Shown in pieces: positions 34,074 to 63,447 of a stretch of 64,000 nucleotides of DNA (position 1 is the first letter of the stretch; every line of letters starts with the position of its first letter). The translations under genes were made by a program, and so were the position numbers. Origin of the DNA: Caldilineaceae bacterium (GTDB lineage Bacteria; Chloroflexota; Anaerolineae; Caldilineales; Caldilineaceae); NCBI GenBank assembly GCA_019637685.1, contig JAHBVF010000019.1:1-64000 (forward strand). The letters run 5' to 3'. The notes under the pieces are model-generated. The model ran no database searches and was not told the DNA's origin. It was given only the letters and a program-made list of their open reading frames with translations.

Positions 34074-34694
34074 TCAGCTTTCCATCGACTGTGCAAAAAC
34101 CAGGTTGCTATCCACCGCTGGGCTATAGTAACCGGAACCAGCGCAGGCCCGGCAGAGAGTCTGACCGCCCACCCACACCTCCCGCTCGTTGATAATTTCC
34201 TCGCCGCAGCGCTCGCAATCCACACGCACAATCGGCCGGCTCACAATCTGCGCCACAGGGGTCGTCAGGCTCACCGGCTGGATAACGAGCAGTTCGGCGT
34301 CGGGCATCACCTGATAGGCCTGCAACTGGGCAAAATAGTGGCGACGCTCGCCAGGGGCATAGGCGTAGGCCCGGTCTCGCACGTCCAGCCGGGGGGCCAC
34401 CCGCACGGCCCGCTCGCTCTTCACATCCACAAAGACGGCGGCAATTTTGCCATAATCCTCCAGACGCAGGGTGCGGTGACCCATTGTGCAGCCGGTGGCA
34501 ACTTCCACACCGTCGGCAAAGCAGCCATCGCTTTCCACAAAAACGAGCAGCCGCTTGTCCGTGCGGGGGAGGTCCAAATCCAACGCGCGGCCACCGGCCA
34601 GACCCATGCGCGCGCCGAGTACCTGACGCGGGCAGAGATGGCTGTGGCGGGCCGAGGACGCGGCCAATATAGCCGACAAGTTGTGAGAAAACAC
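34074..34694 (-). CDS. FmdE family protein with C-terminal zinc finger, 206 aa
   Basis: Resembles formylmethanofuran dehydrogenase subunit E, a family linked to molybdopterin enzymes. The N-terminal core has ASSARHSHLCPRQVLGARMGL and FVESDGCFADGVEVATGCTMGHRTL. The conserved C/H residues probably bind metal. A C-terminal zinc ribbon has CERCGEE and CRACAG. The GTG start at 34694 has a GGAG site at 6 bases and is part of the 3' end of a probable Moco riboswitch. No formylmethanofuran genes are here, so a Moco-related or Mo-sensing role is inferred. Confidence 0.75.
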   Translation of the reverse strand: MFSHNLSAILAASSARHSHLCPRQVLGARMGLAGGRALDLDLPRTDKRLLVFVESDGCFADGVEVATGCTMGHRTLRLEDYGKIAAVFVDVKSERAVRVAPRLDVRDRAYAYAPGERRHYFAQLQAYQVMPDAELLVIQPVSLTTPVAQIVSRPIVRVDCERCGEEIINEREVWVGGQTLCRACAGSGYYSPAVDSNLVFAQSMES

Positions 34695-34699
34695 AGGTG

Positions 34700-34865
34700 G
34701 CTCCTTTCCAAGTCAGACGCCGGCCTGAATAGCGGGCGTCGTCGGGAGGTCGCGTCGTTTCCAGCCGCGGCCCTGGCAGAAATTGTTTCCTGCGTCCTCG
34801 CACGGGCGAGGCGGCGGATCGACCCTGGCCGTAGCTGTAGGCCGGTCCGCTCGGAGTGGGTTTGG
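34700..34865 (-). ncRNA. Probable Moco (molybdenum cofactor) riboswitch
   Basis: Read on the minus strand, the leader has a CTCCGAGC segment (34849-34856), a GGCC-tacagcta-CGGCC hairpin (34828-34843), then CCAGGGC (34770-34776), CCTCCCG (34743-34749) and TGGAAAGG (34703-34710) in the order seen in known Moco RNAs such as the one before E. coli moaA. The last segment includes the ribosome site of the FmdE gene, so ligand binding could block translation. The downstream Mo-related gene supports it. A covariance search (RF01055) is decisive. Bases 34866-35002 show nothing else. Confidence 0.65.
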
Positions 34866-35002
34866 TTGTACAGAAGCCGAGTTTCTTCCGAGAGACTCAG
34901 TGTCTGATGGTCTGCTGATTATACCCTCTGCGTGCGTTCTGGCAACTGTAGAGCCAGGCAGGTTGTGGGCTGGTCAGGTGGCTGGAGAAGACGGGGACAG
35001 CT

Positions 35003-61438: not shown

Positions 61439-61644
61439 TGGGGAATCCTCGTTGGTGGATAGAAAGCCGCTGATGAACGAACAAACACTGATGGGACAGA
61501 TTATCACAGATGACAATCGGGCACAATCGAAAACTTCGTGACTATTCAGCCGTCAGTCAGCCGGTTAGCAAACGTCGGTTGAGTAGCCTGGGGCTGTTTC
61601 CAGGCGTATCGAAACCTGTTACGGTATAGTGGACGAAGTGGCAT

Positions 61645-61828
61645 CGATGGGGTAAAACCAGGTAGAAATCTGACCGATTTCACCCCATCGGCACCAGATC
61701 GAGGAAAGAAGGACCTTATCGAAACAGCGCTGCGAGCGCTACCGCTGGACAGTCCGCCTCGATCACGCCAGGTTCACCATCCAAAGCGTGTTGCGTCGAG
61801 AACGCCCTAACAGGAGAATGGCTACCTG
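61645..61828 (+). ncRNA. Predicted IS110 bridge RNA
   Basis: Three hairpins lie in the IS110 leader. The first has stem CGATGGGGT/ACCCCATCG (61645-61690). The second has stems GATCGAGG/CCTCGATC (61697-61704, 61757-61764), GGAC/GTCC and AGCGCT/AGCGCT, with loops TATCGAAAC (61717-61725) and CTGGACA (61745-61751). The third has stems CAGGT/ACCTG, CCAT/ATGG and GCGT/ACGC, with loops CAAAGCGTGT (61782-61791) and CCCTAACA (61805-61812). The second is the target loop and the third the donor loop. Loop matches: left target 9/9, right target 7/7 (as complement), right donor end 10/10, left donor end 7/8 (as complement). Confidence 0.8.
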
Positions 61829-61871
61829 CGTCCGCCGATGAACTCCTCGTGTCAAGCACAAGGAGGCCACA

Positions 61872-63086
61872 ATGGCAGTTTACCTTGGGATTGACTGGAG
61901 TACAAAGAGCCACGCGTTAGCATTCATTAACCAGGAAGGAGGTACCATCGCCGAAGAAACCATTCGCCACAGCGCCCAAGGGTTCGCCCGACTGGATGAG
62001 CTGCGTTCCAGCCTGGACGTGTCAGCCGCCGATTGTCGGGTGGGCATCGAGAGCAGCCACACACTGATGATGGACTGGCTGTGGGCAAATGGATACGAGC
62101 AAGTCTATGTGGTTCCACCGCGGATGACAGCCAGTCGCCAGGCAAGTTATGGGCAGAGCGGGGCACGCACCGACAGTCGAGATGCCTATCTGATTGCGAA
62201 TCTACTGCGGACAGACCTGCACCTGCTCCACCCTTGGCGCCCCCATTCAGTCGCCATCCAGGCCTTACGCACTCAGGTTTCCCTGCGCATACAACTGGTG
62301 GCGGAGCGGGTGCGAGAGCAGAATCGGCTGACTGAACTGTTAAGTCGCTACTATCCCGCCTTTCTGCAGGCATTTTCTCTGGACACGGACGTAGGGCTGG
62401 CCTTTTTGCAACGCTACCCCACCCCCCAGGCCGCCGACGAGTTGACCTGGAGCGAATTCGAGGAATTTGCCTGCACTCAGGGCTATGCCTCCCAGCATCG
62501 GACCAAAACATTTGCGGCCCTGCAGCGGACACAGCCTCTGGCTCTGGCCGAAGTCGTTGCGGTTTCCCAGCAAAAAGCACTCCTGCTGGCCCAACGGATG
62601 CAGCAGACCCGGCGCTTTATCAAAGAGACGGAGAAATCGATTCAGGCTCTGTATCTCGAACATCCAGACTTCTATATATACGATTCACTGCCCGGTGCCG
62701 GGGAAGCTCTGGCCCCTGCTCTGTTGAGTAAGCTGGGCGACGACCGGGAGCGCTTTCCCTCGCCGGCCACCTTGCAAGCCTTTGCCGGTACCGCACCGGT
62801 GACCGAAGAAAGCGGCAAATGGCGCAAGGTTCGTTTCCGCCAAGCCTGTGACAAAGAGTTCCGCACGATTGTTCAGAACTGGGCCAAGGCTTCTCTCCAG
62901 AAGTCTCCCTGGGCCCAAGGCTATTTTGCCCAGGCAAAGGAGCGAGGCCACTCCTCCGCCCGAGCCTATCGGGCACTCGCCAATCGCTGGCTGGCTATCC
63001 TTTGGACTCTCTGGCAGTCCGGCCAGCCTTATGACGAAGAGTTCCATCTGCAACGGGTCAAAGCTCGCAAAATGCCTCGTTGCTAA
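61872..63086 (+). CDS. IS110 family transposase (bridge RNA-guided recombinase), 404 aa
   Basis: A DEDD recombinase that uses RNA guides. The RuvC-like domain has D8 (YLGIDWSTK), E60 (VGIESS), D101 and D104 (RTDSRDA). The C-terminal Tnp domain has LPGAGEALAPALLSKLGDDRERFPSPATLQAFAGTAPV, and the catalytic Ser S314 is in EESGKW. The length is typical (about 400 aa). An AGGAGG site lies 5 bases before the ATG. The leader upstream encodes the predicted bridge RNA. Confidence 0.93.
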   Translation: MAVYLGIDWSTKSHALAFINQEGGTIAEETIRHSAQGFARLDELRSSLDVSAADCRVGIESSHTLMMDWLWANGYEQVYVVPPRMTASRQASYGQSGARTDSRDAYLIANLLRTDLHLLHPWRPHSVAIQALRTQVSLRIQLVAERVREQNRLTELLSRYYPAFLQAFSLDTDVGLAFLQRYPTPQAADELTWSEFEEFACTQGYASQHRTKTFAALQRTQPLALAEVVAVSQQKALLLAQRMQQTRRFIKETEKSIQALYLEHPDFYIYDSLPGAGEALAPALLSKLGDDRERFPSPATLQAFAGTAPVTEESGKWRKVRFRQACDKEFRTIVQNWAKASLQKSPWAQGYFAQAKERGHSSARAYRALANRWLAILWTLWQSGQPYDEEFHLQRVKARKMPRC

Positions 63087-63447
63087 TCGCCCTTTGTGTG
63101 CTTTTGCTTGACATCGTTTCTCTCACTCTCTACTTTCATTCTGTGCAGACATGAGCGTTCTACGGTCAGATTTCGCCATTCATAGCACGGCCAGAGCGGT
63201 GTTGGATTACTGTAATCTATCGTGCTTCGACACCCTCTCTTCAACGCGCTTTTCTCCCATTTTGGGGCTTGACAAAGCGTGTCCAGTTTGCGGGTCTACC
63301 CGCTGAGTTTCGACACGGCCACAAACTGCTGTGGCCTGCCCAACCGGCGCTGGCCTGAATAGTCACAAAACTTCTTCCTATAGTCGGCCAGGAACCTCGC
63401 CAAACAGAGCGCTATCAAAACGCCAACAAAGTGCTAACGCCGGAATC

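What the first reader, a model, noticed from the sequence alone, without database searches (positions are those of the whole stretch)
61645..61828. Bridge RNA decoded from sequence: four loop segments match target and donor ends
The leader folds into a 5' hairpin, a target loop and a donor loop. Loop segments TATCGAAAC (61717-61725) and CTGGACA (61745-61751) match 61607-61615 and the complement of 63280-63286. CAAAGCGTGT (61782-61791) matches 63273-63282. CCCTAACA (61805-61812) matches the complement of 61617-61624 at 7 of 8. All four fall in the order and strand expected of IS621-like bridge RNAs, and agree on one TGT core.
Basis: partly seen in the sequence, partly recalled or inferred. Interest (0 to 1): 0.92.

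Follow-up and report, generated by a model that had tools for sequence, protein, structure and literature searches.

The report
IS110 bridge RNA targeting palindromic repeats

Summary
A two-loop fold is shared with 12 related leaders and supported by compensatory changes. Across the relatives, target-guide segments match each element's own flanks and not those of others (0 of 200,000 permutations for both left and right guides). Empty sites and sister copies correct the decoding. TGT is not the core: empty sites lack it, because it lies at both ends of the element. The core is a CC dinucleotide (target CC or TC). The right target guide is CCGCTGG (61742-61748), not CTGGACA. The right donor guide extends through the core (CCCTAACAGG). 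With a CC core the circle junction forms a -35/-10 promoter with an 18-nt spacer; with a TGT core the spacer would be 13. The element's four copies sit mostly in dispersed palindromic repeats, as IS621 does in REPs. One oddity: the left target guide is out of register with the core by 1 nt at two sites and by 2 nt at one or two. Verdict: new member of a known kind; the register slip is a modest novelty. No RNA or recombination was measured.

The parts
61617..63282 (+). IS110-group insertion sequence, outside the core dinucleotides: starts TGTTACGG, ends AAAGCGTGT
   Evidence: Second copy at G000:C69 is 100% identical from window 61616 to 63286 and diverges outside; third and fourth copies at C45 and C30
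61615..61616 (+). Left core dinucleotide CC (from the target)
   Evidence: Empty MITE arms GTATCGAAACCAGTTTG against the filled site
63283..63284 (+). Right core dinucleotide CC (from the donor)
   Evidence: Same comparison; at C45 the left core is TC and the right core is CC
61606..61615 (+). Left target GTATCGAAAC (9/10 to the left target guide, shifted 1 nt from canonical register)
63283..63289 (+). Right target CCAGTTT (4/7 to the right guide here; CCAGCGG 7/7 at C69 and C45)
61645..61690 (+). 5' stem-loop of the bridge RNA (CGATGGGGT/ACCCCATCG)
   Evidence: MFE fold; 5 of 9 pairs with changes on both sides in 13 leaders
61697..61764 (+). Target-binding loop: outer stem GATCGAGG/CCTCGATC, inner GGAC/GTCC, apical hairpin AGCGCTGCGAGCGCT
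61716..61725 (+). Left target guide TTATCGAAAC
   Evidence: The same 10-nt position in 11 relatives matches their own left flanks
61742..61748 (+). Right target guide CCGCTGG (corrected from CTGGACA)
   Evidence: 7/7 at C69 and C45; the same position matches own right flanks in 9 relatives
61765..61831 (+). Donor-binding loop: stems ACGC/GCGT, AGGT/ACCT, CCAT/ATGG, apical hairpin GCGTCGAGAACGC
61782..61791 (+). Left donor guide CAAAGCGTGT, identical to the right end of the element
   Evidence: tracks the right end in relatives by inspection
61805..61814 (+). Right donor guide CCCTAACAGG, including core-pairing GG; 9/10 to CCTGTTACGG
   Evidence: Covaries with the left end in relatives
63273..63282 (+). 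Left donor (right end of element) CAAAGCGTGT
63269..63274 (+). -35-like TTGACA, completed by the -10-like TATAGT (61625-61630) across the circle junction, spacer 18 nt
   Evidence: same layout in most relatives
61872..63086 (+). DEDD recombinase, 404 aa, D8/E60/D101/D104 and Ser314
   Evidence: Pfam PF01548 E 1e-29 and PF02371 E 3e-15; aligned to IS621 and ISCro4
61538..61614 (.). Left half of the interrupted MITE (TIR GTGACTATTCAG, 8-bp TSD AAAACTTC at 61530-61537)
63285..63366 (.). Right half of the interrupted MITE (TIR CTGAATAGTCAC, TSD AAAACTTC at 63367-63374)

Best explanation
This is a recently active IS110-group insertion sequence. Its left end encodes a bridge RNA with a 5' stem-loop, a target-binding loop and a donor-binding loop. 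By analogy with IS621 (inferred, not measured here), excision makes a circle whose joined ends (TTGACA-18 nt-TATAGT across a CC core) form the promoter that drives the RNA. The RNA then guides the DEDD recombinase to join the circle to chromosomal sites reading TATCGAAAC(C/T)C-AGCGG, using left guide TTATCGAAAC and right guide CCGCTGG. Such sites are common in dispersed palindromic repeats, so the element accumulates there, mostly without breaking genes. Shown by sequence: element ends, empty sites, four copies, a conserved covarying fold, and guide-target and guide-donor matches in a dozen relatives. Inferred: transcription, RNA binding, and the chemistry.
For: Two-domain DEDD recombinase related to IS621 and ISCro4, with catalytic positions kept. 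Exact ends from sister copies. Empty sites: about 30 uninterrupted MITE copies. Fold: 20 of 32 pairs change on both sides and 81.8% of cells pair, against 75.4% in shuffles and at most 51% for slid partners. The model built on it finds the RNA in leaders that were not used to build it, at E 2e-9 and 4e-8 upstream of IS110 genes of 27-34% identity. Left guide against own flank: mean 8.8/10, against 4.3 for mismatched pairs (maximum 7); 0 of 200,000 permutations reach the observed sum. Right guide: 63/70, 0 of 200,000; non-core 43/50, 0 of 200,000. Donor guide covariation: CCTGTTA, CCTATTA, CCTTTTA and CTAGTTA ends are each mirrored in the right donor guide. Promoter at the junction in most relatives.
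Against: No transcript or activity data exist. At the window copy itself the right guide matches only 4 of 7, and the left guide is one base out of register with the core. The host-gene homologues at C69 imply one extra base at the left junction there. The outer donor-loop stem pairs in only 57.8% of cells in this alignment. L104, L109 and L124 each have one end that is decayed or does not match.
Confidence: 0.95

Rival explanations
1. The same element, but with a TGT core.
Against: Empty repeats have no TGT. Relatives share CC (or CT) outside the end trinucleotides, and their left ends vary (TGT, TAT, TTT, AGT) while CC stays. A TGT-shared junction would give a 13-nt promoter spacer.
Confidence: 0.02
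2. The leader is an ordinary structured 5' UTR or attenuator of the transposase, and the guide matches are chance.
For: The leader ends in a ribosome-binding site (AGGAGG) next to the ORF, and the fold z-score of the window leader alone is modest (-2.07).
Against: Guide segments track each element's own target and donor ends across relatives, in permutation tests with 0 of 200,000.
Confidence: 0.02
3. The insertions into repeats reflect MITE movement carrying the IS, not RNA-guided targeting.
For: Two copies lie inside the same MITE family.
Against: The two copies sit in different arms and sequence types of the MITE; C30 is in a different repeat and C69 in a gene, yet all share the same target motif.
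Confidence: 0.04

Closest known systems
IS621 bridge RNA and recombinase (Durrant 2024, PMC11208160; Hiraizumi 2024, PMC11208158)
   Same: Left-end bridge RNA; 5' stem-loop, target loop then donor loop; left guides read as top strand, right guides as its complement; right guides include the core; sigma-70-like promoter rebuilt at the circle junction; insertion into dispersed palindromic repeats; left-junction core from the target and right-junction core from the donor, as IS621 top-strand cleavage after the core would give
   Different: CC core, where IS621 has CT; second core base C instead of T; recombinase 404 aa and only distantly related; left guide is 10 nt with a register 0-2 nt away from the core depending on element and site; different guide sequences; relatives are in Anaerolineae and other Chloroflexota genomes
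ISCro4 transposase (PDB 9t56)
   Same: IS110-group recombinase with solved structure, aligned in both domains
   Different: Only remote sequence similarity; bridge RNA not compared here
IS1111-group seekRNA elements (Siddiquee 2024, PMC11187229)
   Same: DEDD recombinase, non-coding-region RNA selects the target; some target REPs and attC sites
   Different: IS1111 elements carry the RNA downstream of the gene and have long subterminal inverted repeats; this element carries it upstream

Membership tests
IS110 family (IS110 group) | DEDD RuvC-like domain plus Tnp domain with conserved Ser | tested here: met
   PF01548 and PF02371; D8, E60, D101, D104, S314 align with IS621 D11, E60, D102, D105, S241 (PMC11208158)
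IS110 family (IS110 group) | Long non-coding left end and shorter right end | tested here: met
   255 nt before the ATG, 196 nt after the stop
IS110 family (IS110 group) | Insertion at a short core with no long terminal inverted repeats | tested here: met
   Dinucleotide core CC (target CC/TC) from empty sites
Bridge RNA (IS621 type) | 5' stem-loop, target loop, donor loop with conserved pairing | tested here: met
Bridge RNA (IS621 type) | Guides complementary to own target and donor on the expected strands | tested here: met
   permutation tests for the target guides; donor guides compared by eye and by match counts
Bridge RNA (IS621 type) | All four guides include the core dinucleotide | tested here: not met
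   Right guides do (GG); the left target guide reads AC at the core position and the left donor guide does not match CC. In most relatives the left target guide does reach the core. I take this as variation within the kind, since every other tested feature is met.
Bridge RNA (IS621 type) | Promoter rebuilt at the circle junction | tested here: met
   TTGACA-18-TATAGT; transcription itself not testable
Bridge RNA (IS621 type) | RNA is transcribed, binds the recombinase and directs recombination | not testable with these tools
   Needs RNA-seq and assays
IS1111 group | RNA in the right end, long subterminal inverted repeats | tested here: not met
   The RNA is upstream of the gene
Rfam families | Match to a curated RNA family | tested here: not met
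   No hit above gathering score in the region; best E 2.5, chance level

The most novel reading that the evidence does not exclude
One and the same bridge RNA has directed insertion with its left target guide paired in two registers relative to the core (1 nt off at C11 and C30, 2 nt off at C45 and perhaps C69), and natural relatives fix registers 0, 1 or 2. The spacing between left guide pairing and the cut would then be elastic, and the right guide plus core would set the cut site.
Probability: 0.4. Interest if true: 0.5.

Novelty: new member of a known kind. Interest (0 to 1): 0.36.

Why it matters
It shows that a bridge RNA can be read straight off a raw genome and then checked from sequence alone, through sister copies, empty sites and relatives. 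It adds a Chloroflexota clade with a CC core and a 10-nt left guide to a family in use as a genome-engineering tool. The apparent tolerance for a 1-2 nt slip between left guide and core would matter for predicting off-target sites of bridge recombinases. It also repeats the IS621 pattern of parking in dispersed palindromic repeats.

Tried and rejected
A single-protein scan of genome contigs found nothing; an alignment query recovered 55 loci. A joined-flank pattern with TGTCCAG found no site in the genome, which helped expose the wrong core. Multi-copy more distant relatives in the same phylum have leaders that the covariance model barely finds (L030 E 0.15), so their guides were not decoded. 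Rfam gave only chance-level hits. The broken-looking ORF at C45 (91% identity with about 40 gaps between error-free ends) was considered as a hybrid element and set aside in favour of an assembly error. L206 and L207 are decayed remnants and were not used.

Full report
What is there. ORF 61872-63086 (404 aa) is an IS110-family DEDD recombinase (Pfam PF01548 E 1e-29, PF02371 E 3e-15). Its profile aligns with the solved IS621 and ISCro4 recombinases, with the four acidic residues and the catalytic serine conserved (residues named in PMC11208158; the serine assignment uses a 2-residue offset in the PDB chain, inferred from D11 lying at chain position 13). The host genome holds a second copy on C69 that is 100% identical over window 61616-63286 and diverges outside, a third on C45 and the first 49 bases of a fourth at the end of C30. 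The element's ends are therefore known without guessing.

The core. The window copy and the C45 copy lie in a roughly 162-bp MITE-like repeat (terminal repeats GTGACTATTCAG, 8-bp target duplications), of which about 30 uninterrupted copies exist in the same genome. Empty arms read GTATCGAAA-CC-AGTTTGCGGG and TCGAAAC-TC-AGCGGG. Filled sites read AAA-CC-TGTTACGG...GCGTGT-CC-AGTTTG (C11) and AAAC-TC-TGTTACGG...GCGTGT-CC-AGCGGG (C45). TGT is thus element sequence at both ends and the exchange is at CC/TC. At C45 the left core is the target's (TC) and the right is the donor's (CC), which is what IS621-type top-strand cleavage after the core gives (PMC11208158; inference by analogy). In relatives the element's first bases vary (TGT, TAT, TTT, AGT) while CC (CT in L127) stays. 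With a CC core the circle junction gives TTGACA-18 nt-TATAGT; relatives give 17-18 nt spacers with five or six of six -10 matches in all but L126.

The RNA. Twelve related leaders from other Chloroflexota genomes align over their length. A structure drawn from the window sequence and counted on them gives 20 of 32 pairs with changes on both sides, above all shuffles and slid controls; the 5' stem-loop has 5 of 9. A covariance model found the RNA upstream of IS110 genes of 27% and 34% identity that were not in the training set (E 2e-9 and 4e-8). Rfam has no family that matches.

The guides. In each leader the ten bases between GGACC and the apical hairpin of the target loop match that element's own left flank (mean 8.8/10, mismatched pairs 4.3/10, maximum 7; 0 of 200,000 permutations). 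The seven bases before the conserved AC(N)GTCC match its own right flank (63/70 over ten elements; 0 of 200,000; 43/50 outside the core). Several elements share targets (L106/L108; L124/L126/L127), so cross matches within those groups were set aside when the mismatched-pair mean was computed. The element ends and guide positions were read off by hand before scoring, and up to 2 nt of slack was allowed for own and mismatched pairs alike. The right donor guide follows changes in the left end. For this element the guides are TTATCGAAAC (61716-61725), CCGCTGG (61742-61748), CAAAGCGTGT (61782-61791) and CCCTAACAGG (61805-61814). A left match of 9/10 with 0-2 nt slack occurs at 7.5e-5 of random window positions.

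The register. In most relatives the left guide ends on the core (shift 0); in L127 it ends one base early and in L130 two (10/10 match). In this element the same RNA sits at shift 1 at C11 and C30 (9/10) and shift 2 at C45 (9/10). At C69 the best ungapped match is only 6/10 at shift 2, and homologues of the interrupted zinc-ribbon gene suggest one extra T at the left junction. The C11 and C45 registers rest on many empty repeats. Since C11 and C69 are 100% identical throughout, the guide has probably not changed between insertions; later mutation of a junction cannot be fully excluded. Unfilled sites with the ideal left half and core exist in the genome (TATCGAAACTCAG at C5 and C18).

Targeting. 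Two of four copies are in MITE arms and C30 is in a related palindromic repeat. This repeats the IS621/REP association (PMC11208160; PMC1525189, known here by title and abstract only) and implies low-harm insertion sites; that the preference is selected for is inference.

Standing. The element is a new member of a known kind. Transcription, RNA binding and recombination are inferred.

Noticed in passing
window 34685-34868 (-): Molybdenum/tungsten cofactor (Moco) riboswitch, Rfam RF01055, 48.1 bits, above the gathering score.
   Followed up: no
window 61530-61614 and 63285-63374: MITE-like 162-bp palindromic repeat with TIR GTGACTATTCAG and 8-bp target duplications, about 30 copies in this genome; related palindromes occur in other genomes of the genus and in G017. 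Its mobilising transposase was not sought.
   Followed up: partly
L006 (G000:C69) near the element: The C69 copy interrupts a short zinc-ribbon protein gene; homologues in the genus imply one extra base at the left junction relative to the dinucleotide-core model.
   Followed up: partly
L007 (G000:C45) about 1330-2500: The element copy on C45 has an ORF with about 9% differences and about 40 gaps between perfectly identical ends, probably an uncorrected assembly stretch.
   Followed up: partly
L124, L126, L127: Three related elements in different genomes carry left guides for TGTCATTC(C), which looks like the tail of another dispersed repeat (GGAATGACA...TGTCATTCC), suggesting that the clade often aims at palindromic repeats.
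   Followed up: partly
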